From a virus: a DNA stretch of 34,024 nt. This document shows positions 538 through 32,596 of this stretch, one piece after another. The stretch is from positions 1 to 34,024 of IMG/VR virus record IMGVR_UViG_3300033141_001026. One strand, given 5' to 3'. A program made the position numbers and the translations under genes. Below the pieces are notes generated by a model, which saw only the letters and a program-made list of their open reading frames with translations, searched no databases and was not told where the DNA came from. Position 1 is the stretch's first letter; each line of letters starts with the position of its first letter.

Positions 538-580
538 TTGTATCATTCCTCCTTGTAATATTATAACACACTACTTATAT

Positions 581-1075
581 TTAAAGCTTTTGGTTATATA
601 GAATATATCCTAGCACTGGTTTTACTTTTGTATACCTTGATTTTAATAGTATGTTAGCTCCACTATTTTTATCATTTAATGCTTTATCGTCGGTAAGATT
701 ATCACTTAATGTTTTTATACTCTCAGACATTAAATAATCTATCTCTTGATAGGTTAAACAATTTGAATCTTTCTGATATATATATAATGCTTTCTTCTCC
801 TCCTTACTTAATACGAGTTGTAACATCTCGTGATCATTCATACCATCTTGTTTAGCTGTCTTTCTTACTAAGATGACTAATTGGTTTAACATCTTCTTTA
901 ATCGTTCCGTTAATTGTCCTAGCATATCCAAATGTCCATAGTTAATCTTACCTGTTTTAAACACCATACAACATTTACTATAATACTGATAATCAACCCA
1001 TGAACCACACGCAATTGTAGTCATACGAGTTATAGGTAATACTTCTCCTGTAATACAACACTGTTCCATATTCAT
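581..1075 (-). CDS. Hypothetical cysteine-containing protein (164 aa)
   Basis: Begins MNMEQCCITGEVLP and has five cysteines within the first 40 residues (CC at 6-7, C23, CC at 35-36), possibly a metal site. A predicted helical middle and a lysine-rich C-terminal end follow. Its ATG overlaps the TGA of the upstream gene (ATGA), and GAGAGGG in that gene's tail serves as ribosome binding site. I do not recognise the family. About 60 bases without a gene separate it from the next leftward gene. Confidence 0.7.
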   Translation of the reverse strand: MNMEQCCITGEVLPITRMTTIACGSWVDYQYYSKCCMVFKTGKINYGHLDMLGQLTERLKKMLNQLVILVRKTAKQDGMNDHEMLQLVLSKEEKKALYIYQKDSNCLTYQEIDYLMSESIKTLSDNLTDDKALNDKNSGANILLKSRYTKVKPVLGYILYNQKL

Positions 1076-2745: not shown

Positions 2746-3420
2746 TTATAATTCACTTATAAATTCCTTTAATGTCTTATAATTAAACTTCCTACAAGTT
2801 TTCATAACTTCTCTATCCTCCTTTATGAGTATAGTTCCGTTTTTTAGGTTAGGCGACAACTTAGCCCAGTTAACTCCTTTATCCATCATCATATCCATCA
2901 TATCCATTTTATTTTTTTTATACAGTTGTTTCTGACTATATAAAGACCTTGCTAACATCTGAATACTGTTTCTCTTCCAATCCTGCATCCTCCATAAAAA
3001 ATAATTAGGTACTTCATTGTCTGGTAATATAAAGGCTCTTGAATCAAACAATCCTTCTCTATCTATCTCTTTACGAGTTAATTGGTTAAACTTATATGTA
3101 GACATTGAAGCAGTAATACTCGCTAATTTTTGGAGTATATTACCGAAATAACATTCTGTTTCTTCCGTCGCTCTGTCGTCTAATAATAAACTGATTTCAT
3201 CAGACTGAGTATAAACCATTTTACAATTCTGTACATTCTCCAAAAGATACTTGGAAGTTTCTTCCATACATTTAATAAAGAGTTTACAAAAAGGTTTATC
3301 TAACCCTCGTGTTAAAGTATGAAAGGCTTTTCCATCTACCCTTATTATTACTGGATGTTTCTTTGGGAGTTTTACTTTAAACACTTGTTCGTATTCCTTC
3401 ATTCTATTTCCTAATTTCAT
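2746..3420 (-). CDS. Thg1-like 3'-5' nucleotidyltransferase (tRNA 5'-end repair or guanylylation)
   Basis: 224 residues, normal for the family. Thg1 and Thg1-like proteins add nucleotides in the 3'-to-5' direction to tRNA 5' ends. Visible motifs: HPVIIRVDGKAFH (metal-binding D29), YTQSDEISLLL (D74, E75), FDSRAFILP, then NYFLWRMQDWKRNSI. The HINNLYN stretch of eukaryotic Thg1 is replaced by KRNSIQMLA, as in the Thg1-like (TLP) group that repairs truncated tRNAs using a template. A longer in-frame start exists at 3501, but its first 27 residues overlap a real Cys4 microgene, while GGAGGAGGAAT lies just before the ATG at 3420, so that start is chosen. Substrate specificity cannot be read from sequence. 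Confidence 0.88.
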   Translation of the reverse strand: MKLGNRMKEYEQVFKVKLPKKHPVIIRVDGKAFHTLTRGLDKPFCKLFIKCMEETSKYLLENVQNCKMVYTQSDEISLLLDDRATEETECYFGNILQKLASITASMSTYKFNQLTRKEIDREGLFDSRAFILPDNEVPNYFLWRMQDWKRNSIQMLARSLYSQKQLYKKNKMDMMDMMMDKGVNWAKLSPNLKNGTILIKEDREVMKTCRKFNYKTLKEFISEL

Positions 3421-3421
3421 T

Positions 3422-3520
3422 TTATTCCTCCTCCTTACCATCACAATCATCCAAATATCTTGGACAGTTCTCACAACCTTGACCGCTTGGGTCACAATCA
3501 TTTAAATCATATTCATTCAT
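3422..3520 (-). CDS. Acidic Cys4 microprotein (32 aa)
   Basis: Begins MNEYDLNDCDPSGQGCENC, with cysteines at 9, 16, 19 and 27 and an acidic tail KEEE, suggesting a small metal site. AAGGTG precedes the ATG. Its stop is one base before the Thg1-like ATG, and its tail encodes that gene's ribosome binding site. It is the first gene after the promoter at 3564-3585. Confidence 0.55.
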   Translation of the reverse strand: MNEYDLNDCDPSGQGCENCPRYLDDCDGKEEE

Positions 3521-3563: not shown

Positions 3564-3585
3564 AAAGATTTATAAATCTTTCCCC
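3564..3585 (-). promoter_or_regulatory. Leftward archaeal-type promoter with palindromic TATA box
   Basis: On the minus strand GGGGAAAG (BRE-like) is followed by ATTTATAAAT. The core at 3564-3581 is a perfect 18-bp palindrome. Transcription would begin near 3550-3545, about 30 bases before the start at 3520. It probably drives the Cys4 / Thg1-like / EF-hand genes. Confidence 0.6.
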
Positions 3586-3598
3586 TTAAATCGGTATA

Positions 3599-3622
3599 TA
3601 TAACCGAAAGCCTTAAATATAA
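3599..3622 (+). promoter_or_regulatory. Rightward archaeal promoter (TATAACCGAAAG type) facing a leftward gene
   Basis: TATAACCGAAAG followed by CCTTAAATATAA, closely matching the promoters at 6811 and 27959. The predicted start is near 3642. No rightward gene follows: a GGGAGG box at 3644-3649 precedes an ATG whose frame stops after four codons. The transcript would run antisense into the gene at 3719-3979. It may make a small RNA or antisense RNA. Confidence 0.5.
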
Positions 3623-4599: not shown

Positions 4600-4611
4600 G
4601 CCAACGTTGGC
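4600..4611. repeat. 12-bp perfect palindrome in the leader of the left operon
   Basis: GCCAACGTTGGC is a perfect palindrome in an otherwise AT-rich leader, about 35 bases upstream of the first gene of the left operon. It may be an operator for a dimeric repressor or an RNA hairpin in the leader. Confidence 0.45.
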
Positions 4612-4709
4612 TGAAAGTCATTGTATTCTCTAAAATCAATAATCCTACTCCGTAACTAGTATTAGGTGTTGGATTGTCGTCACTTGTTCGCTTAATTAAT
4701 AGTAAGTTG

Positions 4710-4731
4710 CCTTAAATATATAAATGTTTCG
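4710..4731 (-). promoter_or_regulatory. Leftward archaeal-type promoter for the left operon
   Basis: The minus strand reads CGAAACATTTATATATTTAA: a BRE-like CGAAAC directly before a long TATA box. Transcription would start near 4690-4685, giving a leader of about 125 bases before the ATG at 4565 that contains the palindrome at 4600-4611. Confidence 0.6.
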
Positions 4732-4984
4732 TTTTTGCCTCTAAACCAGTATACATTTTAGTATATTCCCTTAATCTAATTAGTATACTAGGAGCCTTTA
4801 AAGTATAATTCGCCTTTAAAGTAAGATTCATTATATTATATATTTTGTTATTCATTTTCTTTTATTTATGTTGTATTATATAGTATACATAATATATACT
4901 ATATTATAGTTGTCACTAATCTTTAGTTAATTAATTTATAAATTATAATGCTAAAAAATAAAATAAAGAAAAATAAAAAGTAAG

Positions 4985-5080
4985 TCATTGGATATATATA
5001 TTAAAGTTTACATATCCTTTGACTTGTTCCCCAATAACTTTTATTGTGTTGGTTGTTGGTACAAATTTTATATAATCCAT
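4985..5080 (-). CDS. Microprotein (31 aa) with its own promoter and terminator
   Basis: Begins MDYIKFVPTTNTIKVIGEQV and ends ...NFNIYIQ. GAGGTGAT lies seven bases before the ATG, a TATA box at 5120-5128 lies about 45 bases upstream, and an A-rich terminator-like tract follows. These three signals make this very short frame a credible independent gene. No family is recognised. Confidence 0.55.
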   Translation of the reverse strand: MDYIKFVPTTNTIKVIGEQVKGYVNFNIYIQ

Positions 5081-5119
5081 TGTATCACCTCTGATATAAT
5101 TATACTTAGGATGAACTAC

Positions 5120-5135
5120 TATATAAACTTATCTA
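5120..5135 (-). promoter_or_regulatory. Leftward TATA-type promoter for the 31-aa microgene
   Basis: Minus strand GATAAGTTTATATAGT. The expected start is near 5098, about 18 bases before the ATG at 5080. The BRE is weak. It lies back-to-back with the rightward promoter at 5197. Confidence 0.5.
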
Positions 5136-5196
5136 CCATTCACTAGTAGTCAGTGTCACAAGATAGTAACAACTTAGCATTTGTTTATTAATACTA

Positions 5197-5213
5197 TCGA
5201 AAGATTTATAAAT
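5197..5213 (+). promoter_or_regulatory. Rightward archaeal promoter driving a leaderless membrane microgene
   Basis: TCGAAAGATTTATAAAT combines a BRE-like CGAAAG and a TATA box. The expected start (about 5230-5238) falls at or just before the ATG at 5238. The longer frame beginning at a TTG at 5181 would place this promoter inside a coding region. Confidence 0.65.
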
Positions 5214-5237
5214 AGGAGTATCATAGTATATAATACA

Positions 5238-5417
5238 ATGATGAAATACAAAGAATTAACATACTGGAATAATAAATCTTATGGCTCAGCTATCAGAATA
5301 ACAAGAGCAAGACTATTATTAATTTTTATTATTGTGTGTATTTGTACACCTGCTACCAATTGGATGATAGTTTTTGCTAAGAAAATAATAAAGAAAGACT
5401 TAGTTTTTAGGTATTAA
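5238..5417 (+). CDS. Small membrane protein (59 aa), probably leaderless mRNA
   Basis: Begins MMKYKELTYWNNKSYGSAI. A hydrophobic segment LLLIFIIVCIC...TNWMIVFA spans about residues 27-49 and ends with lysine-rich FAKKIIKK, suggesting one membrane pass. A TTG start 57 bases earlier is possible, but its first 19 codons contain the promoter at 5197-5213 and no ribosome binding site, so the ATG near the predicted transcription start is preferred. The gene stands alone between oppositely oriented operons and is followed by a T-rich stretch. It might be an early membrane effector or superinfection factor; no family is recognised. Confidence 0.55.
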   Translation: MMKYKELTYWNNKSYGSAIRITRARLLLIFIIVCICTPATNWMIVFAKKIIKKDLVFRY

Positions 5418-5633
5418 TTTCTTTCCTTTTCTTATTATATAGATACTCTAGTATATGCTTTCATAGAGGTACCTAGAATCAACGATAATGTTTTTGATAC
5501 TAGCATACCTAAAACAAATAAAGTCTTCATACAGAGCAAATAAAGGGTACTCAGAAGCAAATTAGAATAATACTACTAGTTACATATTACAATACTAAGA
5601 AATAGAAGTAAGATAAATAAAAAAAGAGTGGTA
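5418..5633. other. Non-coding segment between convergent transcription units
   Basis: A pyrimidine-rich tract at 5415-5440 follows the rightward membrane gene and looks like an archaeal T-run terminator. An A-rich tract at 5611-5627 is a T-run for the leftward operon ending at 5634. The middle 170 bases hold no gene, tRNA or repeat that I can support. Confidence 0.5.
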
Positions 5634-5762
5634 TTAGAGTTCTTTTAGAAAATCCATAACCTTTGGGGAGTTGTGACTATCTTTATATCTCTCCCACTCT
5701 CTTTTTATCTCTTGATTAGTATAAGTTCTGTATTCTGTCATTGTATTATCACTCTGTACCAT
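5634..5762 (-). CDS. Microprotein (42 aa)
   Basis: Begins MVQSDNTMTEYRTYTNQEI and continues as a charged helix (KREWERYKDSHNS). An internal ATG at codon 8 is an alternative start. It begins one base after the stop of the zinc-ribbon gene and is followed by a T-rich terminator. Function unknown. Confidence 0.55.
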   Translation of the reverse strand: MVQSDNTMTEYRTYTNQEIKREWERYKDSHNSPKVMDFLKEL

Positions 5763-5763
5763 T

Positions 5764-5898
5764 TTAAGCACCATTATAAAATAAAGTGTTGTTGCATTTC
5801 TTACAGGTTAAGTGTAACCATCTAAATTCTTCATCATCATCTTTTAATAATTCTGCTTTTAAACTCTTACTTCCACATTTAGTGCATTTAACTATCAT
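5764..5898 (-). CDS. Zinc-ribbon microprotein (44 aa)
   Basis: Begins MIVKCTKCGSKSLKAELL with a second knuckle CKKC at about 32-35: CxxC-x23-CxxC, a classic zinc ribbon. GAGGTAAA precedes the ATG. Such proteins often bind nucleic acid or RNA polymerase, but no specific role is visible. Third gene of a four-gene leftward operon. Confidence 0.65.
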   Translation of the reverse strand: MIVKCTKCGSKSLKAELLKDDDEEFRWLHLTCKKCNNTLFYNGA

Positions 5899-5935
5899 TT
5901 TTTTACCTCGTCAGTTTTAAATAAAAAATAAAAAA

Positions 5936-6079
5936 TTAAATTTTTTCTATTGATACTTGGTCAATATCAATCTGTTTGGTTTGTATCATTATTGCAGGAG
6001 AGTCTCTCTCCTCCATCTTTGATAACATTTCTATTACATCACTTCTGCATACTATCAAACTAAATATTTCTTCTTTCAT
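5936..6079 (-). CDS. Small hypothetical protein (47 aa)
   Basis: Begins MKEEIFSLIVCRSDVIEML and ends ...IDIDQVSIEKI. It starts one base after the upstream stop (TAAAATG), so it is probably translated by re-initiation. About 35 A/T-rich bases separate it from the zinc-ribbon gene. No family is recognised. Confidence 0.55.
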   Translation of the reverse strand: MKEEIFSLIVCRSDVIEMLSKMEERDSPAIMIQTKQIDIDQVSIEKI

Positions 6080-6080
6080 T

Positions 6081-6236
6081 TTAGTCTAATCTCCATTCTT
6101 TATTCTTGCAGAAGGTACCAATTATTAAGCATCTCTCTGTGTCTTCTGCTTCTTTTAACATCTTCTCAAATCCTTCACCCATAAAACTATCTGTTCTATG
6201 TTCTTTTTTTAAATCTGTTGCATATATATCAGTCAT
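6081..6236 (-). CDS. Small hypothetical protein (51 aa), first gene of a four-gene operon
   Basis: Begins MTDIYATDLKKEHRTDSFM. GGGAG lies about nine bases before the ATG, and a TATA box at 6295-6303 lies about 60 bases upstream. The product is a charged helical peptide with two cysteines near the C-terminus (C36, C43). No family is recognised. Confidence 0.6.
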   Translation of the reverse strand: MTDIYATDLKKEHRTDSFMGEGFEKMLKEAEDTERCLIIGTFCKNKEWRLD

Positions 6237-6294
6237 TTTTTATCAACTCCCTAGTTTATTTTTATCTTCTGATAAGTATAATTAAGGGAGTACA

Positions 6295-6308
6295 GTATAT
6301 AAACCTTG
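6295..6308 (-). promoter_or_regulatory. Leftward TATA-type promoter of the four-gene microprotein operon
   Basis: Minus strand ACAAGGTTATATACTG, with predicted start near 6272 and a leader of about 36 bases to the ATG at 6236. It abuts the GTATAC array, so array-binding factors could act on it. Confidence 0.5.
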
Positions 6309-6340
6309 TGTGTCCAGTGGTTTATAAATGGAAATATACT

Positions 6341-6718
6341 AGTATACTAATGTGTATACTGATTATTCATATATATTATTACTATAGTACTATAGTGTAT
6401 AGTACTATAGTATACTGTAGTCTTACTATAGTATACTATTATTGTATTATATATAGTACTATAGTATACTATATACAACTATAGTATACAATATAGTAGT
6501 ATACTAATACCTATTGTAGTATACATTATAGTATAGTGGTATACTACATTGTAGTATACAATATAGTACTACATCATACTATAGTCACTATAATTTAGTA
6601 ACACATAGATTTATAAAGGTATCTATAGTATTATGTTGATATAAAGTAGATTATGTTGACCTAAGCTCAACAGTATAGTGTAGTGTATACTAGTTCAGGA
6701 ATAACCACATAATGTATA
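6341..6718. repeat. Array of GTATAC palindromes (TAGTATAC/CTATAGTA words)
   Basis: GTATAC starts at 6341, 6353, 6409, 6430, 6463, 6483, 6498, 6518, 6538, 6553, 6684 and 6713, mostly within TAGTATACTA or TAGTATACAA. Between 6463 and 6553 the spacing is 20, 15, 20, 20, 15 bases, often near whole or half helical turns. This looks like an iteron cluster for a DNA-binding protein: candidate replication origin or operator array between the early and late blocks. A frame across it codes only for a low-complexity Tyr/Ile/Val peptide and is not a gene. Confidence 0.65.
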
Positions 6719-6810
6719 CTAGGGTAGAGTAGTGAGGACATAGGAGGTAAATATGTAAGTAGTTTTTCACATAGAGATTAAATTTCTACCTAGGGACAGA
6801 ATATACAGTT

Positions 6811-6834
6811 ATATAACCGAAAGCTTTATATATT
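6811..6834 (+). promoter_or_regulatory. Rightward late-operon promoter (TATAACCGAAAG type)
   Basis: TATAACCGAAAG followed by CTTTATATATTA, a strong BRE/TATA pair. Transcription should start near 6852-6858, at the ATG at 6859, giving a leaderless first gene. It is the only clear promoter at the head of the roughly 22-kb rightward block. Confidence 0.75.
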
Positions 6835-6858: not shown

Positions 6859-7089
6859 ATGAAGTTTGAAGAAGAGTTCCCGAGTTTAAAAGAATGTGTA
6901 CCTTTACAACAAGATGAATATTCTAATAGGTTTTATTCAGAACATAAAATTATGGAGCATTGTCTTGACAAGAAAAGAGTTAGAACTATTATTAGTAATC
7001 ATTTAAGACCAATACCAGGTACTGATAAGGTTATTGTTACTGGTCTTCAATTTAGTTTAATGTTACAACAACTGGGGTTGGATGAATGA
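6859..7089 (+). CDS. Hypothetical protein (76 aa), first gene of the late operon
   Basis: Begins MKFEEEFPSLKECVPLQQDE and has a basic central part (CLDKKRVRTIISNHLR). A longer in-frame start at 6838 begins only a few bases after the TATA box and would precede the expected transcription start, so the ATG at 6859 is chosen. Its position ahead of the terminase suggests a packaging or regulatory role, but I see no terminase small-subunit signature. Its stop overlaps the next start (ATGA). Confidence 0.65.
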   Translation: MKFEEEFPSLKECVPLQQDEYSNRFYSEHKIMEHCLDKKRVRTIISNHLRPIPGTDKVIVTGLQFSLMLQQLGLDE

Positions 7090-7627: not shown

Positions 7628-7792
7628 ATGGGTTTAGTAACAGAATTTGAAGTTAAATGTATAAAGTGCGGTGAGATGTATATGAGACCGCGAAGATTAT
7701 TGGAATCAATTAATCAAATGAATGAAAAGGATATTTGTATTAAATGTAGAGGTAGACAGTTATCTCGACATCCAGTAGTAGGAAGGAAGTAA
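7628..7792 (+). CDS. Zinc-ribbon protein (54 aa) adjoining the terminase
   Basis: Begins MGLVTEFEVKCIKCGEMYM, with CxxC at 11-14 and CxxC at 37-40 and a basic C-terminus (CRGRQLSRHP). AAGGTG precedes the ATG. It overlaps the terminase start by one base (TAATG). A basic zinc ribbon here may bind DNA during packaging; that is inference from position. Confidence 0.65.
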   Translation: MGLVTEFEVKCIKCGEMYMRPRRLLESINQMNEKDICIKCRGRQLSRHPVVGRK

Positions 7793-9414
7793 TGCAGGAA
7801 ATAAAAGTAGATGGTGCGTTTATAAGACGTATGGAAGAATATCGTAAACCTGACAAGACAGTAGGTTTAATTGAAGCATGTGCAAAGAATGTAATTGTAT
7901 TTTCTGAGTATATGTTAGGTTTAAGATTATATGCATGGCAAGTATATTATCTAGTTAAGATACAAAAAGCTATGGATTCTGGTAATACAGATAAAGCTGA
8001 AGACCTAATAAGAGAATTTCTTGCATTAACATCTAGACAGATTGGTAAGTCTACAGCTATAGCAGTATTTTCTAATTGGGTATGTGTATTTAATAAGTAT
8101 CCAGGTACGTTATCTGAGAATACATCAGTATTAATTGCATCAGCTTCTGATGTACAAGCTAAGAAGTTATTATATGAAATGAAGAAATGGATGAAGATTG
8201 GTGATAGGTTTATGCAAAGGACTTATAAGGATGACAGTGATAAAGCTGCATTCGGTGAAGAGTTCTTTTCAAAGTTATTGGATGACGGAGAACCTAATAA
8301 TACAACTACTATTACATTTAGACCTTATGATGAAGAGAAACATGGTTTCTTATTAAAAGGTTCACTGAGTGGCTCTACAATTAAATCGTATCCTCCAACG
8401 AGTAGTGTCCTTGGTGAAACCGCTAGTGTGGTGATTATTGATGAAGCAGGTAAAACGGATAAAATCTCAGATCAGTTCTTTTATGATTACTTATATCCGA
8501 CAGGTAACAGTACTAATGCTGTTAGAATATATGTTAGTACTCCTTGGGTTAGTTCTGGTTTTTTCTACCGCATGGTCGACCCAGATAACTTCTATTCAGA
8601 CACCCCTGCTGATGTTGTGGTGTTTACTATTGATGCTATACGTATTGAAGCACCAGACTACTACAAAGTAGTTATGAAGACAGTTAACCAAATGAATAAA
8701 GATGGTAAGACTGATGAAGTGCAAAGAGCTTATTATTGTAGATTTGTTAAAGGTGAAAAGGCTTATTTTAAACCTGAAAAGATATTTAACATGTTTACTG
8801 ATACATACACTCCTTTAGAATCAACTAAAGATTTATGTGACTTAGGAGTAGATTTTGGTGGACAAACAACTTCTAAGACAGTGTTAACTATATCTAAGTC
8901 TAATGAACAAGAAGAAGTTATTAGGTTATATAAAAGGATATATGAAGTTGGAAAAGATAATAATCTTATTGAAGACATTGAAGAGTTAAAAACCAGGTTT
9001 AACATACAACGTATAATACCTGATGAATGTCCTCAAGGTGATTATTTAATTAGACAGATGGTTGATAAAGGTTGGGAAGTACAGCCAATGAATTTTAGAA
9101 GTGAAAAGATTAAGAAGTATGGTGCTTTTAGAAGTATGTTGAATAAAGGTATGATTAAAAGTTTTATAGATGAAGATTTAAAAACTGAAATGTTAGCTAT
9201 GGAGATAATGAGTGGTAGAAGACAGAGTATCATTCAACATGCACCAGGTTATAGTGATGATGAGATTGATAGTTTTATATTAAGTGCCTATTTCTTTTTA
9301 GTAGAAGAAGGTAAAATGGAGTTTTTTGATTATGAAGGAGAAGAAACAGGAAGTATTTTCGATAGATGGAAAAGAGCAAGGGAACCAAAATATGAAGCGA
9401 GAAACAACCTTTGA
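7792..9414 (+). CDS. terL: Terminase large subunit (ATPase-nuclease packaging motor)
   Basis: 540 residues, typical length. It translocates viral DNA into the prohead and cuts concatemers. Visible parts: YAWQ at 47-50 (adenine-binding type motif), Walker A SRQIGKST at 81-88, Walker B VVIIDEAG at 213-220, a C motif region near STPWVSSG (249-256), then the RNase H-like nuclease with GVDFG (D354), IIPDEC (D411) and DDEIDSF (D490/D493). ATPase and nuclease residues all appear intact. GGAAGGAAGT lies just before the ATG. Confidence 0.95.
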   Translation: MQEIKVDGAFIRRMEEYRKPDKTVGLIEACAKNVIVFSEYMLGLRLYAWQVYYLVKIQKAMDSGNTDKAEDLIREFLALTSRQIGKSTAIAVFSNWVCVFNKYPGTLSENTSVLIASASDVQAKKLLYEMKKWMKIGDRFMQRTYKDDSDKAAFGEEFFSKLLDDGEPNNTTTITFRPYDEEKHGFLLKGSLSGSTIKSYPPTSSVLGETASVVIIDEAGKTDKISDQFFYDYLYPTGNSTNAVRIYVSTPWVSSGFFYRMVDPDNFYSDTPADVVVFTIDAIRIEAPDYYKVVMKTVNQMNKDGKTDEVQRAYYCRFVKGEKAYFKPEKIFNMFTDTYTPLESTKDLCDLGVDFGGQTTSKTVLTISKSNEQEEVIRLYKRIYEVGKDNNLIEDIEELKTRFNIQRIIPDECPQGDYLIRQMVDKGWEVQPMNFRSEKIKKYGAFRSMLNKGMIKSFIDEDLKTEMLAMEIMSGRRQSIIQHAPGYSDDEIDSFILSAYFFLVEEGKMEFFDYEGEETGSIFDRWKRAREPKYEARNNL

Positions 9415-9893: not shown

Positions 9894-11144
9894 TTGGCTA
9901 GAAAGAAATATATAAAGAGTGCTGATAGTAAGGCAGCATTAACAACATTTACACTGAATACTGACACAGCCACGGTTTATCCAGACTTCTCGATTCAAGC
10001 AACTATTAATGCTATTAATAATGACCCAGTAGCTAGAGGTGCATTTAATCATTTTGTTGATAAATGTATGGAAGGCAATATTAACATTATCAAACGAGAC
10101 TCCAGAAAACTTGACCATGATGAACTGGAAAGATTACAATCTAAATTTAAATACAGAACAGAAATTCTTAGGAAAACATTTGCATTACTATTTCTTAATA
10201 ACAACACCTTTACAGAGATTGTAAAGGATATGAATGATACTAAGTCTTTAAATGTTTTAGATACAGATAACGTAAATCCTATCACAGAACCTAACGGTGA
10301 CCCAATTAAATATAAAAGTAAAGTTCCACATCCAATAACTGGAAATTATGCTGAATGGACTAAAGAAGAAATTGTTTGGACTAAACTAGGTGACATCTCA
10401 AAAGGATGGGCACCAATTGATATAAGAGCATTGTGGGAGAATTTATTAACTAAAAGTTATGTTATGCGTTATACAGCATGGTTATGGAAAACTGGACAAT
10501 ATAGAATATTATATAACTTTAAAAATTCAAGTAAACAAAATGTACAAGATTTCTTAACTTATGCAAGAAAGACTGAGAATAATTTCAAGTTACCTTTTAT
10601 TGCTAATGGTGATATGGAAACTAAGATTCTTAGAGATATGAAAGAAACAGATTCAATTACTCTATTACTTAAATATCTTGATAGTCAAACTTTAATTCTA
10701 ATGAGAGTACCTCCAATTGATGCAGGTATTCCAGACGCTTCAGGTAGAAGTAACGCAGATGCACAAAGTAATAACTTAGTAACTAGAATACATTCAGTTA
10801 AAACTGTTGTTGCAGATTCACATAATTATGATTTATTTCCTAAAATTAATAAGAAGAATAACTTATTAGTATTTGGACCTTCTGATCGATTTCATGAAAA
10901 ACAAGTATTTGAAACAGTACAAATGATGCAAAGTATGACAATGACTCCAGAAGTTATGCAAGAGTATTTTGAATCTAAAGGTATTTATTTTAAAGCTACC
11001 ATGTTTAAAAAAGAAGAACCTATGGAGACAGGTAATCCTAGAGATAAGGATATGGCTCCTAGTAGACTTGGAAAAGGTGCAGGAGAATCAGAAGAAGTTG
11101 TTGGTACTGGAAAAGAATCAACAACAAGAGAGGACCAGTTATAA
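9894..11144 (+). CDS. Portal protein
   Basis: 416 residues, usual for HK97/SPP1-type portals. It would form the dodecameric ring at the capsid vertex through which DNA enters and exits. Recognisable traits are the N-terminal FSIQATINAINNDPVARGAF segment, the central IVWTKLGDISKGWAPIDIRAL region before a helical MRYTAWLWK segment, and a polar, low-complexity C-terminal tail. Location between terminase and protease supports the call. The start is TTG with AGGT eight bases before it; no ATG is available near the N-terminus. Confidence 0.85.
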   Translation: MARKKYIKSADSKAALTTFTLNTDTATVYPDFSIQATINAINNDPVARGAFNHFVDKCMEGNINIIKRDSRKLDHDELERLQSKFKYRTEILRKTFALLFLNNNTFTEIVKDMNDTKSLNVLDTDNVNPITEPNGDPIKYKSKVPHPITGNYAEWTKEEIVWTKLGDISKGWAPIDIRALWENLLTKSYVMRYTAWLWKTGQYRILYNFKNSSKQNVQDFLTYARKTENNFKLPFIANGDMETKILRDMKETDSITLLLKYLDSQTLILMRVPPIDAGIPDASGRSNADAQSNNLVTRIHSVKTVVADSHNYDLFPKINKKNNLLVFGPSDRFHEKQVFETVQMMQSMTMTPEVMQEYFESKGIYFKATMFKKEEPMETGNPRDKDMAPSRLGKGAGESEEVVGTGKESTTREDQL

Positions 11145-13823: not shown

Positions 13824-14741
13824 ATGAGTACAAAAAAAGAATTTATGAAAGCAGCACTAGATACTAGTAATGCATTTATCTCTACTGACTCAGAAGCAGT
13901 TGCTGTTAACCCTAATATTTGGGATTTCAGACTTAGAGATTACGAAGAAAAACAATTAGTTTTCACCCCACAAACTGAACAATTTGATTTCAGAGGATCA
14001 GGTGTAGACTATAAGGTTACAATTGATGAAGCACCATCAGCTGCTGCTGCATTAGTTGAAACTGACGACGTGTCAATCAGTTCATTTACCACAAGACCAG
14101 TTACCTTTACTCCAACAGAGTATGGTGCAGCTTACCAAATAACCAGAAAAGAAGCAGTTAGAGCATTTTTTAATGTTGCTGAAAGAATGGTTGTTAAGCT
14201 TGGATATTCCATGGCACAAAAGAAAGATTCATTAGGTGTATCAACCGCAGTTGCAGGAGCAACCACAGCACTATTAGTTAATAGTAAGTCCGTTACTTCA
14301 GACCTTGCATCAACAGATACATTAGATTACGCATCCATCACTAAGGGAGCAAGATCAATTGAAGCTTTGCTTTACACACCTGTAGATTTGTTTGTTAATC
14401 ATTATGGTAAACAACAACTATTAGACCTAACCACAGTTCATAAAGCTAATGAGTTTGGTACAAGAGACGCAATTGAAAGAGGACTAGTTGGAGAACTATT
14501 CGGTATCCGAATTTTCGTTAGTCATTCTATCCCTGTTGCATCAAGTGCATCAACCGTTGTTATGATGGGAATGTCTAGAACAGGAGAAAAAGCAGTTGGT
14601 TACGCAATCAAGCGAGACCCTATTATAGAACGTGAATATCACGCACTAGGTAGATTCTGGGATATTGTAGGTCATGAAGAATATGACTTCCAAGTACTAC
14701 ACCCTGGAGCAATTTGCACAATTGAACATTACTCAGCTTAA
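13824..14741 (+). CDS. Major capsid protein, HK97 fold
   Basis: 305 residues. Forms the icosahedral shell. The polar N-terminal arm (about 1-60) is followed by a beta-rich region with FTPTEYGAAYQITRKEAVRAFF (about 95-115), a spine-helix region, ASITKGARSIEALLYTPVDLFVNHYGK (A domain), and EREYHALGRFWDIVGHEEYDFQVL near the C-terminus, typical of HK97-like capsids in uncultured tailed viruses. The sequence is richer in C and G than its neighbours, as often seen in highly expressed genes. ACGAGG precedes the ATG; a T-rich tract follows. Confidence 0.88.
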   Translation: MSTKKEFMKAALDTSNAFISTDSEAVAVNPNIWDFRLRDYEEKQLVFTPQTEQFDFRGSGVDYKVTIDEAPSAAAALVETDDVSISSFTTRPVTFTPTEYGAAYQITRKEAVRAFFNVAERMVVKLGYSMAQKKDSLGVSTAVAGATTALLVNSKSVTSDLASTDTLDYASITKGARSIEALLYTPVDLFVNHYGKQQLLDLTTVHKANEFGTRDAIERGLVGELFGIRIFVSHSIPVASSASTVVMMGMSRTGEKAVGYAIKRDPIIEREYHALGRFWDIVGHEEYDFQVLHPGAICTIEHYSA

Positions 14742-27424: not shown

Positions 27425-28012
27425 ATGGAATGGAGTAAGTTATTTCAATTATTTGGATTAGGTAATCCATTTAAGAATATCTGGTACAGATTAGATTGGC
27501 GTAAACCTAATGCTAGTTCTGTTCAAGAGTTCCTTGGAGATAACATATCACAAACAATTCAACTTATGCATGAAGGTAAGTTACCTACATTCACAGGTAC
27601 ACAAGACGAAATTGTATTAAAAATCCTTAGATGGGTTAAGAAGAAATTAATCTATGAAGCGGATTCCAAAAGATTTAAAGTAGCGGAGAAATGGCAAACA
27701 GTTGTTGAAACAATTACATTTAATAGAGGTGACTGTGAAGATGGTGCTATTCTTATTTATTGTATGGCTCGTGCTCATAGAGTATCTGCTTATGCGATTA
27801 GGGTTGTTGCAGGTGATGTACAGAATCCAAACGATAAGGATAAAACTGTTGGACATTGTTGGGTAACCTATTATCCTGATGAATTTTTTGCAACATTCCC
27901 TTATGTTTTAGATTGGTGTTACTATTATGATAAGAATCCCTTTATAAAGGCAGAAGGATATAACCGAAACCTTTATATATCAGAATGGTTTAACATATCA
28001 TATAGTGGGTGA
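27425..28012 (+). CDS. Transglutaminase-like cysteine enzyme (peptidase or amidase)
   Basis: 195 residues. Motifs match the transglutaminase/cysteine protease fold: RGDCEDGAILIYCMARA with C104, GHCWVTYY with H144, and YVLDWCYY with D163, a complete Cys-His-Asp triad. Family members hydrolyse or form isopeptide bonds, and some virus-encoded relatives cut cell walls; archaeal pseudomurein endoisopeptidases use a similar triad. There is no signal peptide and no wall-binding repeat, so wall lysis, DNA entry or virion crosslinking are all possible. The gene carries an embedded promoter near its end. Confidence 0.78.
   Translation: MEWSKLFQLFGLGNPFKNIWYRLDWRKPNASSVQEFLGDNISQTIQLMHEGKLPTFTGTQDEIVLKILRWVKKKLIYEADSKRFKVAEKWQTVVETITFNRGDCEDGAILIYCMARAHRVSAYAIRVVAGDVQNPNDKDKTVGHCWVTYYPDEFFATFPYVLDWCYYYDKNPFIKAEGYNRNLYISEWFNISYSG
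27959..27980 (+). promoter_or_regulatory. Promoter embedded in the transglutaminase-like gene
   Basis: TATAACCGAAAC followed by CTTTATATAT, almost identical to the promoter at 6811. It lies in codons for YNRNLYIS. The predicted start near 28000 precedes the ATG at 28018, so it could drive the two terminal membrane genes. Confidence 0.6.
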
Positions 28013-28937: not shown

Positions 28938-29218
28938 AAATATTCTACTAATCCCTCATAACTTCTAGACTCTTCAAAAGCACAACAATAAGCTTGATGT
29001 ACTAATTTGTAATCTAAATAATTATGTTTCTTAAACATATGTTCTTGGTTTTTCTTTAATGAAGTACTGAATATTCTATTAGACCAATAATCATAATACC
29101 TAAGTTTCTGATTAATAAAACCTATATCTTCAGAGAGTTCCACAAGATAATCAATACCCTTTGTTCGTTTTAACCTAGTCTCATACTCCTCATGATATTT
29201 ATCTAAAGGACTATTCAT
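28916..29218 (-). CDS. Hypothetical protein (100 aa)
   Basis: Begins MNSPLDKYHEEYETRLKRT. Charged and helical, with YYDYWSNRIFSTSLKKNQEH. Its ATG overlaps the TGA of the glycosyltransferase (ATGA); a TTG six codons upstream is less likely. Last gene of the leftward surface-modification cassette. It might assist the glycosyltransferase; no family is recognised. Confidence 0.6.
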   Translation of the reverse strand: MNSPLDKYHEEYETRLKRTKGIDYLVELSEDIGFINQKLRYYDYWSNRIFSTSLKKNQEHMFKKHNYLDYKLVHQAYCCAFEESRSYEGLVEYLKNKIKK

Positions 29219-29940
29219 TGTCTTGGAGGTAACCAACAGCCATGCTTCTTAATAAAATACTCTTTACCCTTTTCTATATTTTCTTTCCAATCTTCTCTTG
29301 GTCTAATAGAACTGTTATCAATACTGTTTGGTATCTCTTTTAATAGTTTATAGTTTAATATGTTATCAGCAAATGTCCAGAATGGTGTAGTCATACCTGC
29401 CTTACATATTCTGTATGTATGCTCAACATGTTCCCAAGCATTAATAAACTTCTCATCTAAGTAACCTATTTTATCTATACATTCCTTAGTATAATAAGAG
29501 AAAGCTCCAACACAATCAGGGTATACTCTAATACCTTCAATTGTTGATGCACCCTTACCTATATTCATTGGACCGTGTAACGCAAAGTTTAAGTGATGTA
29601 AGTTAAACATCTTAGCATAAGTTACATAAGAGTTACAAGTCTTTGGATACTTCATAAGTATATCATCTTCCATTAAAAACAAATGTTCACACTCAGCCAT
29701 CATTAAAGCTTCTAATCCATTATTCTTTGAATGTGCTATACCACGATTCTCATCTTTAGTAATTATATGTATATTATCTGGTAAGGTCTCTAAGAATTCT
29801 ACTGTACCATCTGTACTACAATCATCAACAACTACAACATAATCAGCACCACCATAATTATTCTCTTTTAGAGATGCTAAACATTGTTTAAGATAATCTA
29901 TTCTGTTGTAAGTCATAATTGCTAATCCTATTTTATTCAT
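29215..29940 (-). CDS. Family 2 glycosyltransferase (241 aa)
   Basis: GT-A fold: MNKIGLAIMTYNRIDYLKQC at the start, VVVVDDCSTDGT at about 35-47 for nucleotide-sugar binding, ENRGIAHSKNNGLEAL, and FLMEDDILM with the metal-binding DD. WEHVEHTYRICKAG fits the later acceptor/catalytic region. It would transfer a sugar from a nucleotide donor to an unknown acceptor. Overlaps genes on both sides; no membrane segment, so cytoplasmic. Confidence 0.85.
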   Translation of the reverse strand: MNKIGLAIMTYNRIDYLKQCLASLKENNYGGADYVVVVDDCSTDGTVEFLETLPDNIHIITKDENRGIAHSKNNGLEALMMAECEHLFLMEDDILMKYPKTCNSYVTYAKMFNLHHLNFALHGPMNIGKGASTIEGIRVYPDCVGAFSYYTKECIDKIGYLDEKFINAWEHVEHTYRICKAGMTTPFWTFADNILNYKLLKEIPNSIDNSSIRPREDWKENIEKGKEYFIKKHGCWLPPRQ

Positions 29941-30229
29941 TTTTCTTATACCACTCTTGTAAATATTTAGGAAACGTATCTCCTGTCAATTTTCTTACAA
30001 CATACTCCTCAGCAAAATCAGTACAAGTTGTTGCATCTTCTATTGCTATATGTATTGTCTCATGTATATAAGTATCCATAAAAATTATTGTAAACTTATC
30101 TACTGTATTAACAGGAGCAATTTGTCTAGCTTTATTCCAACAGTATGTTAAATTAACATATATACTGTCACCATCTCTAAAACCATATAATTCATACTCA
30201 TCTAAATTCTTCACTATCTTTGTTTTCAT
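29933..30229 (-). CDS. Minimal HExxH zincin-like protein (98 aa)
   Basis: Begins MKTKIVKNLDEYELYGFRD and contains IHETIHIAIEDATTCTDFAEEYVV. HETIH is the HExxH zinc-peptidase motif, and a downstream glutamate (EEYVV) could be the third ligand. At 98 residues it is a minimal metallopeptidase domain. Location between two glycosyltransferases suggests processing of a shared substrate, but this is inference. Start by ATGA overlap; a longer GTG start is possible. Confidence 0.7.
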   Translation of the reverse strand: MKTKIVKNLDEYELYGFRDGDSIYVNLTYCWNKARQIAPVNTVDKFTIIFMDTYIHETIHIAIEDATTCTDFAEEYVVRKLTGDTFPKYLQEWYKKNE

Positions 30230-30906
30230 ATATCCCACTTTTTATTATATATTTGTTGACATATAGCCATGTGACCTGTAACACCTAATGCTTTACCTTC
30301 ACTACTAGTTCTATGGTCTAATGTAACATTCTTATCAAGTACTATAGTACCATCACCATATTCATTTCTAATCCTTCTACAATAATCATCATCTGCATAG
30401 TAACCTGCTCCTGTAAGTTTCTCTTCTAAGAATCCTATCTCATCAAATACTTTATAAGGAATTAACCATGCTACTGATGGATACATGTTACAAAAACAAT
30501 GATCTTCATTTGAATCTATGTATAAATGGTTCCTTGCTGTTATAGGTAATTGATCCCTTGGACATATAATAGTACTTTTAGTCTTCTCAGCTGTCTTAAC
30601 TAACTTACCTAACCATCCATTCTCTCTTGGGAATGAATCATTACCAACAAAGAATATGTAATCACTATCAGGAGGTACTGCTGTTAACCCTGCATTTAAT
30701 GTCTTACAAAATCCAATATTTTCTAAAGATACATACCTAGTTACAAAAGGATGTTCAACATGAGACTCTTCTCCTTTAACCCAACCATGTACTAATACAC
30801 ATTCAACTTTAAACTTCTCATCTTTAGTTGTCTCTTGCATCTTATCAAGAAACTCTAATGTTAACTCATACTGAGTATTATATGCTACAACAATCGATAC
30901 TTTCAT
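30226..30906 (-). CDS. Family 2-like glycosyltransferase (226 aa)
   Basis: Begins MKVSIVVAYNTQYELTLEF, a typical GT-A start; ENIGFCKTLNAGLTAV is the conserved helix, and YIFFVGNDSFPREN gives the NDS metal-binding variant of DxD. GAGYYADDDYCRRIRNE supplies later acidic residues, and VTLDHRTSS a conserved histidine. Cytoplasmic enzyme with unknown acceptor. Coupled to the methyltransferase upstream and the zincin downstream by ATGA overlaps. Confidence 0.82.
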   Translation of the reverse strand: MKVSIVVAYNTQYELTLEFLDKMQETTKDEKFKVECVLVHGWVKGEESHVEHPFVTRYVSLENIGFCKTLNAGLTAVPPDSDYIFFVGNDSFPRENGWLGKLVKTAEKTKSTIICPRDQLPITARNHLYIDSNEDHCFCNMYPSVAWLIPYKVFDEIGFLEEKLTGAGYYADDDYCRRIRNEYGDGTIVLDKNVTLDHRTSSEGKALGVTGHMAICQQIYNKKWDI

Positions 30907-31526
30907 TTACTACTCACCTCAAAGAATCCATTACCATATGGATACTTACTAGTCCATTTCTTTTTTACATCTTTAAATTTATAATTAAATCTTAATAACC
31001 TAAATCCTGCATTATTAAACTGATTTATCCACCAATCTTCATCTTTCTTTGTAACATGTGTTACATCAATCTCATACTCTCTAATCCTAAACTTATTGTT
31101 ATCACCTAAAGGTATAACGAAAAAAGCTATCTTACATCTATTTTTTATCTGCTTTAAAATAATAGGTATTTCATCCTCATGTATATGTTCTAAGACATCT
31201 TTACATATAATAAAATCATACTTCTTATCAGTAGGTTTACTAAGATATTTTTTCACAGATGGATGTGCCTGTTTTAATGCATAATCACTTATATCCTCAC
31301 CATAAGCATTTATATTTAATTGCCTCAAAGTATGAACCAAAAATCCTTTAGCACAACCAAAATCTAATACATTATCAGCCAATTGTAATTGTATATTACA
31401 TTTATCCAAAATACTTAACGCTTCCTCATAACTTCTAGTTGGCATATAACTAAAGTTTTCGTAACCAGATACTCCTTTAGTTATACCATTTTCATAATAA
31501 TCTTTATTAAACAAACTTGACATCAT
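30903..31526 (-). CDS. Class I SAM-dependent methyltransferase (207 aa)
   Basis: Rossmann motifs: VLDFGCAKG at 53-61 (SAM binding), YGEDIS near 75-80, and DFIICKDVLEHI near 104-115. The sequence before residue 50 (NKDYYENGITKGVSGYENF) resembles methyltransferases of glycan and small-molecule pathways (YYE.......YEnf type). No DNA-methyltransferase catalytic motif was seen, so a sugar or peptide target is more likely than DNA. Overlaps the radical SAM gene by 20 bases. Confidence 0.85.
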   Translation of the reverse strand: MMSSLFNKDYYENGITKGVSGYENFSYMPTRSYEEALSILDKCNIQLQLADNVLDFGCAKGFLVHTLRQLNINAYGEDISDYALKQAHPSVKKYLSKPTDKKYDFIICKDVLEHIHEDEIPIILKQIKNRCKIAFFVIPLGDNNKFRIREYEIDVTHVTKKDEDWWINQFNNAGFRLLRFNYKFKDVKKKWTSKYPYGNGFFEVSSK

Positions 31527-32472
31527 CTACCTCTACTATTAAACTCTTTAATATTTCATTTTGTTTGGTGTATTTACAATAGCTACACCCTCTATCTTTG
31601 ATTTGAAACTCTTTCTCATAATATCTAACTATATCATCTATAGCACATATTCTAAAAGCTTCAGGTACTGTCTTACCATTCTCTGGTGCTAATTCTGAAC
31701 TAGGACATGAGTATACAAAACCATCTGGGAATACAAATGGTTTAATCATATGTATCATACATTTGTCATCTATTCTGTCGCCTAAATAAGTATTGAAATC
31801 AGATATAAAAGCATATTTATTATCCCATAATTTAGCTTCATAACCTTTTAATTTATCAATTAATTCTTGTATATCTTCTTTAGGTTGAATACAATCAGGA
31901 GTTATTCTAGTTGGTATTTTATTCATATTAGCAAATGAAGTAATATCATAAAATATTGATTCTGTTATATCTTTACTAGCTACATAACATGCAGTAACTT
32001 TGGTAAATTCTTGCATCTCTTTAACTGTACTCTTCCAAGCAGACCTGTCTTTATACTTATCAAATACATTCATAGATACTCTAACCCAATCGAATAATGA
32101 ATAGTCTAAATCAACATTCTTTACTAAACCATTAGTACACATACCAACAGCTAACCCTAAATCTTTAGCTTGTCTAGTTGCATCAGCTAACCCTCTATAT
32201 AATGTGGGTTCACCACCACCTGTCCATTCAATAGCTTCAGCACCTACTATCTTAACCGACTCTAATAAGTCACTTAATTCTTTAGTACTTAATTCTAAAC
32301 TCTTATCTCTACCTTCAAAACAACAATGAGTACATGTCATATTACATTTATTAGTTGGAGCTATATGAAACATTACTGGTTTAGCTACACCATTTTGAAT
32401 ACTCTTCAAGTTATCTAAATGTTTAAACAACTTAACTTCATTACTTGTTATACTATATTTAGTATTCTTCAT
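31507..32472 (-). CDS. Radical SAM enzyme with C-terminal cysteine cluster (321 aa)
   Basis: PTNKCNMTCTHC holds the CxxxCxxC iron-sulfur site (C43, C47, C50); EWTGGGEPTLY is the conserved GGE motif for SAM. The C-terminal part has YSCPSSEL, RICAIDD and CSYCKYTKQN, so at least five cysteines could bind an auxiliary cluster in the SPASM/twitch style. Such enzymes modify peptides, sugars or nucleotides by radical chemistry. AGGTG precedes the ATG at 32472; a GTG two codons earlier is possible. First enzyme of the cassette. Confidence 0.88.
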   Translation of the reverse strand: MKNTKYSITSNEVKLFKHLDNLKSIQNGVAKPVMFHIAPTNKCNMTCTHCCFEGRDKSLELSTKELSDLLESVKIVGAEAIEWTGGGEPTLYRGLADATRQAKDLGLAVGMCTNGLVKNVDLDYSLFDWVRVSMNVFDKYKDRSAWKSTVKEMQEFTKVTACYVASKDITESIFYDITSFANMNKIPTRITPDCIQPKEDIQELIDKLKGYEAKLWDNKYAFISDFNTYLGDRIDDKCMIHMIKPFVFPDGFVYSCPSSELAPENGKTVPEAFRICAIDDIVRYYEKEFQIKDRGCSYCKYTKQNEILKSLIVEVDDVKFV

Positions 32473-32596
32473 TTCCACACCTGCTACATTTAACTCCTAC
32501 GTTCTTCTTATGTTGAAATGCCTTAGAATGACTACATCTAGGACATAACTGTTTAATTATATAGGTTGTAAACTTTCTCTTTCCTCTTCTATTCAT
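32459..32596 (-). CDS. Basic zinc-ribbon microprotein (45 aa)
   Basis: MNRRGKRKFTTYIIKQLCPR opens a basic peptide with CPRC and CSRCGNEEY, a CxxC-x15-CxxC zinc ribbon. A longer frame to 32644 exists, but its first part lies in the overlapping MSPED gene; GAGGAAGAGG lies just before the ATG at 32596, so that start is chosen. It overlaps the radical SAM start by 14 bases. Confidence 0.65.
   Translation of the reverse strand: MNRRGKRKFTTYIIKQLCPRCSHSKAFQHKKNVGVKCSRCGNEEY

What the first reader, a model, noticed from the sequence alone, without database searches (positions are those of the whole stretch)
2746..3420. Virus-encoded Thg1-like protein: possible tRNA repair against host defence
Catalytic aspartates and the TLP-type KRNSI segment are intact. 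No tRNA gene was recognised in the window, so the natural substrate would be host tRNA. TLPs extend truncated tRNA 5' ends in the reverse direction; a virus could use this to mend tRNAs damaged by host defence nucleases. That purpose is inferred, not shown.
Basis: partly seen in the sequence, partly recalled or inferred. Interest (0 to 1): 0.7.

Follow-up and report, generated by a model that had tools for sequence, protein, structure and literature searches.

The report
Viral reverse polymerase for tRNA ends
A tailed virus, probably of an archaeon, carries a well-formed Thg1-like protein, a polymerase that builds RNA backwards and most likely restores lost 5' nucleotides of tRNAs during infection; the enzyme family is already well known in phages, and the idea that it counters host defence was published in 2010 and is still untested.

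Summary
In detail: window 2746-3420 (-) encodes a complete 224-aa Thg1-like protein (TLP) with all catalytic residues. Its closest solved relative is BtTLP, an enzyme that repairs 5'-truncated tRNAs in vitro. TLPs are common in phages (125 annotated phage records; at least 582 viral-contig stretches), and the 'RNA repair against host defence' idea is in the 2010 literature, so this is a new member of a known kind.

Two points are added here. (1) The virus is probably archaeal: four copies of an archaeal-type promoter element, plus a related virus contig binned in an Aenigmarchaeum genome. The evidence is moderate; that related virus has a family-A DNA polymerase. (2) Comparison of about 90 TLP viruses favours general tRNA end repair. 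Their tRNA genes show no excess of 5' mismatches, and 12 of 15 viral tRNA-His genes already encode G-1. TLP viruses carry CCA-adding enzymes (18/50 vs 2/30) and RlaP (27/50 vs 7/30) more often than TLP-free large-phage controls. tRNA-gene carriage does not differ (43/50 vs 29/30). 'BtTLP' itself is encoded on a phage contig. Activity, substrate and the anti-defence purpose remain unshown.

The parts
2746..3420 (-). Thg1-like protein (TLP), 224 aa, phage-type
3422..3520 (-). 32-aa Cys-containing ORF (MNEYDLNDCDPSGQGCENCPRYLDDCDGKEEE) directly upstream, ending 1 base before the TLP start codon; probably co-transcribed; function unknown
   Evidence: reading of the sequence
3567..3585 (-). BRE/TATA-like promoter GGGGAAAGATTTATAAATC ahead of the two-gene TLP unit
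   Evidence: role inferred
3421..3434 (-). Shine-Dalgarno GGAGGAGGAATAAA of the TLP gene
6813..6833 (+). archaeal-type promoter ATAACCGAAAGCTTTATATAT of the terminase/structural operon, about 26 nt upstream of a leaderless ATG at 6859; same layout in related virus L002
577..597 (-). copy of the same 21-bp promoter motif
3600..3620 (+). copy of the same 21-bp promoter motif
27960..27980 (+). copy of the same 21-bp promoter motif
7792..9414 (+). terminase large subunit (used to find related viruses)
9894..11144 (+). portal protein (weak Pfam match, below cut-off)
13824..14741 (+). major capsid protein, HK97-type

Best explanation
The gene makes a working phage-type TLP, a template-directed 3'-to-5' RNA polymerase. 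It activates a 5'-monophosphorylated tRNA end with ATP or GTP, then adds missing 5' nucleotides opposite the 3' acceptor strand, restoring a full acceptor stem. Carried as an accessory gene by a tailed virus, probably of an archaeon, it most likely keeps the tRNA pool usable during infection. Enzyme class and intact active site are shown by sequence and model. The repair activity is inferred from BtTLP. That the substrates are tRNAs of host or virus is inferred. That the damage comes from host defence is a plausible but untested extension.
For: Identity and active site. BtTLP prefers 5'-truncated tRNA (PMC3701042), and its structure-determined sequence is 202/202 identical to a TLP on a 164-kb tail-sheath-bearing phage contig, so the biochemistry applies to phage TLPs. 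Against tRNA-His maturation or mitochondrial-type editing as the general role: of 560 non-Met tRNA genes from TLP viruses, positions 1-3 have 9/3/7 mismatches versus 9-11 at positions 4-7, and 12 of 15 tRNA-His genes encode G-1. Repair company: CCA-adding enzyme in 18/50 TLP records vs 2/30 TLP-free controls, p=0.003; RlaP 27/50 vs 7/30, p=0.01; PNKP, RNA ligase, RlaP and CCA enzyme recur within 6-10 kb of TLP. These records are not phylogenetically independent.
Against: No activity was measured. The window itself has no other RNA-repair gene and no tRNA. RlaP is close to TLP more often than expected only in the pooled set (9/36 within 10 kb vs 4.4 expected, p=0.02), not in the first set of TLP records alone (4/28 vs 3.2). 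tRNA-gene carriage is not linked to TLP once a large-phage control is used (43/50 vs 29/30, p=0.25).
Confidence: 0.68

Rival explanations
1. Counter-defence proper: the TLP repairs tRNAs whose 5' ends are removed by a host defence nuclease, alone or after kinase treatment of cut ends. (This is a narrower form of the best explanation, so the confidences overlap.)
For: RNA-repair enzymes known or proposed as counter-defence (PNKP, RNA ligase, RlaP, NADAR; in XacN1 and RAS14 also rIIA/rIIB) lie near TLP in other phages; proposed in PMC2904730 and PMC7824862.
Against: No nuclease that trims tRNA 5' ends is identified; anticodon-loop cuts need a ligase, and none is in the window. No defence data for this host.
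Confidence: 0.3
2. tRNA-His maturation: it adds G-1 to host or viral tRNA-His.
For: Thg1 superfamily; bacterial and archaeal TLPs can add G opposite C73 in vitro (PMC6471195).
Against: 12 of 15 tRNA-His genes in TLP viruses already encode G-1; TLPs prefer truncated tRNAs over full-length tRNA-His.
Confidence: 0.1
3. 5' tRNA editing of mismatched acceptor stems, as in protist mitochondria.
For: The same enzyme family does this in Dictyostelium and others (established knowledge).
Against: No excess of mismatches at acceptor positions 1-3 in 604 tRNA genes of TLP viruses; ARAGORN may miss badly mismatched genes.
Confidence: 0.04
4. A non-tRNA role, such as altering or adenylylating 5' ends of other viral or host RNAs.
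For: TLPs accept several RNAs in vitro; the first reaction step makes a 5'-adenylylated RNA.
Against: The genome-level company of the CCA-adding enzyme points to tRNA.
Confidence: 0.1

Closest known systems
BtTLP (PDB 4KGK/4KGM, 'Bacillus thuringiensis' Thg1-like protein)
   Same: 37-42% identity in the structural alignments, same fold, same carboxylates, same N-terminal G(D/N)RMK-YE segment
   Different: The window protein is somewhat shorter (224 vs 245 aa) with a divergent C-terminus, and sits on a long branch of its own
phrog_4717 phage tRNA-His guanylyltransferase (e.g. Bacillus phage G gp378)
   Same: Match over residues 1-210, 270 bits; 50% identity to phage G
   Different: The named examples seen are phages of bacteria, mostly with genomes of 80 kb or more; the window is probably from an archaeal virus
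Methanosarcina acetivorans TLP (5AXK), archaeal TLP
   Same: Same fold and active site
   Different: Much more distant in sequence (57 bits vs 187 for BtTLP): the window gene is phage-type, not the archaeal cellular type
Phage RNA repair sets (T4 Pnkp/Rnl; jumbo-phage RlaP, CCA enzyme, ligases)
   Same: Proposed purpose, and the gene company of other phage TLPs
   Different: None of these partners is in the 34-kb window

Membership tests
Thg1 superfamily / TLP | Thg1 palm domain (PF04446) above the curated cut-off | tested here: met
   98.6 bits vs 29.2
Thg1 superfamily / TLP | Three catalytic carboxylates (BtTLP D30, D75, E76) and nucleotide-binding R28 | tested here: met
   D29, D74, E75, R27; invariant across alignments
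Thg1 superfamily / TLP | TLP rather than eukaryotic Thg1 (sequence nearer BtTLP; no HINNLYN-type segment) | tested here: met
   BtTLP E=2e-54, C. albicans Thg1 E=3e-10; the segment is KRNSI
Thg1 superfamily / TLP | Template-dependent 3'-5' addition to 5'-truncated tRNA | not testable with these tools
   inferred from BtTLP (PMC3701042)
Phage TLP family (phrog_4717) | Near full-length match to the PHROG profile | tested here: met
   residues 1-210, E=3e-80
Viral RNA-repair counter-defence system | Linked ligase / kinase / nucleotidyltransferase partners | tested here: not met
   none found in the window; fragment, so the rest of the genome is unknown
Viral RNA-repair counter-defence system | Protects the virus from a tRNA-damaging defence | not testable with these tools
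   needs infection experiments
Archaeal head-tail virus | Archaeal-type promoters and association with an archaeal genome | tested here: inconclusive
   21-bp BRE/TATA motif in 4 copies, 0 expected, similar element ahead of the terminase in L002; related virus contig binned in an Aenigmarchaeum MAG. But that contig has a family-A DNA polymerase, the assignment rests on one bin, looser motif counts do not separate the window from AT-rich phages, and only this one of 194 genomes of that phylum has a clear terminase match

The most novel reading that the evidence does not exclude
A phage-type TLP has moved into a tailed virus of a DPANN-like archaeon whose host lineage has no TLP of its own (0 of 148 genomes over the cut-off). 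There it acts as a lone tRNA 5'-end repair enzyme that overcomes an archaeal RNA-damaging defence.
Probability: 0.15. Interest if true: 0.65.

Novelty: new member of a known kind. Interest (0 to 1): 0.36.

Why it matters
Thg1 and TLPs are the known backward RNA polymerases, and the biological substrates of the prokaryotic and viral ones are still open. Showing that they are very common in viruses, that the best-studied 'bacterial' TLP sits on a phage contig, and that they travel with CCA-adding and RlaP enzymes rather than with tRNA genes, makes the question testable in ordinary phage genetics. If the archaeal host is confirmed, viral RNA-end repair would extend to archaeal tailed viruses.

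Tried and rejected
(1) 'TLP goes with viral tRNA genes': 43 of 50 TLP records have tRNA genes, but so do 29 of 30 TLP-free large-phage controls, so this was dropped. (2) 5' editing: no excess of acceptor mismatches at positions 1-3. (3) Pairing between base -1 and base 73: 257 observed vs 234 expected, within the range of shuffles. (4) A single-sequence TLP scan of viral contigs found nothing; an alignment scan was needed. (5) The ribonucleotide-reductase control set was dominated by records near 60 kb, a poor size match; for the genome-level tests it was replaced by a DNA-ligase-based control. (6) Loose BRE/TATA counts do not separate the window from AT-rich phages; only the strict and 21-bp motifs do. 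(7) Terminase and capsid have no match in the annotated phage collection. (8) The tree could not place the window within the phage TLPs; long branches, and only the quick tree finished.

Full report
OBSERVATION. Window 2746-3420 on the minus strand encodes a 224-aa protein with a strong Shine-Dalgarno at the stated start. It is a Thg1-superfamily protein beyond doubt: Pfam Thg1 98.6 bits, phrog_4717 'tRNA-His guanylyltransferase' 270 bits, BtTLP 4KGK E=1.9e-54. The catalytic carboxylates D29, D74, E75 and nucleotide-contacting R27 correspond to BtTLP D30, D75, E76 and R28 and are invariant among phage TLPs. The KRNSI segment is at residues 149-153. An AlphaFold2 model (mean pLDDT 87.4, pTM 0.85) finds 4KGM/4KGK first and other Thg1/TLP structures next. 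No tRNA was found in the window by ARAGORN or Rfam, but the record is a 34-kb linear fragment.

SURROUNDINGS. A 32-aa Cys-containing ORF (3422-3520, minus) ends one base before the TLP start; both lie behind a BRE/TATA-like element (GGGGAAAGATTTATAAATC, 3567-3585). The window otherwise holds a terminase, a portal-like protein, an HK97-type capsid protein, tail genes, several glycosyltransferases, a radical-SAM protein, a methyltransferase and an HNH nuclease. No ligase, kinase, RlaP or CCA enzyme was found in it; some small ORFs were not scanned against Pfam.

HOST. A 21-bp motif ATAACCRAAANCYTTAWATAT occurs four times with none expected by chance; it reads as an archaeal BRE plus TATA box. 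The pattern was written from the copies themselves, so its chance expectation is somewhat optimistic. Ahead of the structural operon it sits about 26 nt before a leaderless ATG, and a similar layout is present in related virus L002. Seven related terminases were found in viral contigs. One was found in a genome collection, on a 33-kb contig binned in a Candidatus Aenigmarchaeum MAG with the same gene order. Against this: only one bin, a clear terminase match in only that one of 194 genomes of its phylum, a family-A DNA polymerase on that contig, and loose motif counts that do not separate the window from AT-rich phages. I put an archaeal host at about 0.7. None of 148 genomes of that phylum has a Thg1 match over the cut-off, and none of the seven related virus records or the bin holding the eighth has a TLP, so the gene looks like an accessory acquisition of phage type.

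FAMILY. tblastn finds TLPs in 125 annotated phage records. The rows shown cover all but about two of the organism names counted, and none of those seen is an archaeal virus. The 202-aa TLP stretch of L049 is 100% identical to the crystallised 'Bacillus thuringiensis' BtTLP, and L049 lies on a 164-kb contig with tail sheath, virion structural proteins and endolysin. The paper on BtTLP does not mention phage. Its repair biochemistry is therefore effectively that of a phage TLP.

TESTS OF FUNCTION. (a) In 604 tRNA genes from TLP viruses, acceptor positions 1-3 are no more mismatched than positions 4-7 once Met tRNAs are set aside, and 12 of 15 tRNA-His genes encode G-1. Editing and tRNA-His maturation are thus poor general explanations. 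(b) tRNA genes occur in 43/50 TLP records but also in 29/30 TLP-free large-phage controls, so tRNA carriage follows size, not TLP. The complete 88-kb phage PMBT8 has a TLP and no tRNA gene. (c) CCA-adding enzyme is present in 18/50 TLP records vs 2/30 controls (p=0.003), and RlaP in 27/50 vs 7/30 (p=0.01). (d) Near TLP, PNKP, RNA ligase, RlaP and CCA enzymes recur: 26 of 84 TLP loci have at least one within 10 kb, and L066 and L078 have RlaP, TLP and CCA enzyme in a row. The families for test (d) were chosen because they recur there, a few of the weaker profile matches are cross-matches between kinase and CCA profiles, and positional clustering of RlaP is significant only in the pooled set. 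Records in these tests are related to each other, so p-values are optimistic. The control set was chosen through an NAD-dependent DNA ligase and is not matched record by record.

INTERPRETATION. The best account is a tRNA 5'-end repair polymerase keeping tRNAs usable during infection. The step from repair to counter-defence is plausible and was raised in 2010 (PMC2904730) and again for jumbo phages in 2021 (PMC7824862); nothing here tests it.

VERDICT. A confirmed, intact TLP; a new member of a known viral family. The points of interest are the probable archaeal virus, the phage location of BtTLP, and the controlled link to RNA-end repair enzymes.

Noticed in passing
L049:10001-10606 (contig IMGVR_UViG_2698536665_000003): TLP 202/202 identical to the crystallised 'bacterial' BtTLP (4KGK) lies on a 164-kb phage contig with tail sheath and virion structural genes; a near-identical TLP is also in L051.
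   Followed up: partly
L066:8922-12555; L078:9204-12439: RlaP, TLP and CCA-adding enzyme in a row, a candidate tRNA end-repair cassette; RlaP and CCA genes are neighbours in many other phage records too.
   Followed up: partly
L083:8796-9980, also L025, L058, L035, L066: NADAR-NAD synthase or related proteins recur near phage TLPs.
   Followed up: no
L011:5968-12244 and L010:5974-11890: TLP - rIIA - rIIB - RNA ligase gene order shared by Xanthomonas phage XacN1 and Stenotrophomonas phage RAS14.
   Followed up: no
window 577-597(-), 3600-3620(+), 6813-6833(+), 27960-27980(+): Four copies of a 21-bp archaeal-type promoter motif; the copy at 3600 points away from any obvious gene.
   Followed up: partly
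window 6380-6581: Dense array of TATAGTATACTA-type palindromic repeats in a long gene-poor stretch (about 4600-6800), perhaps an origin or regulatory region.
   Followed up: no
window 3422-3520: 32-aa Cys-containing ORF directly upstream of the TLP, not listed by any tool.
   Followed up: no
window 29215-32478: Cluster of glycosyltransferases, a methyltransferase and a radical-SAM protein beside the structural genes; glycosyltransferase-like genes are also on the related contig (L020, L225).
   Followed up: no
L225:13942-15711: Family-A DNA polymerase on the related virus contig binned as Aenigmarchaeum, which I would not expect in an archaeal virus.
   Followed up: partly
L065:1376-1448: Viral tRNA-His with encoded G-1 but A73, giving a G-1:A73 pair; a tRNA-His in L142 shows the same.
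   Followed up: no
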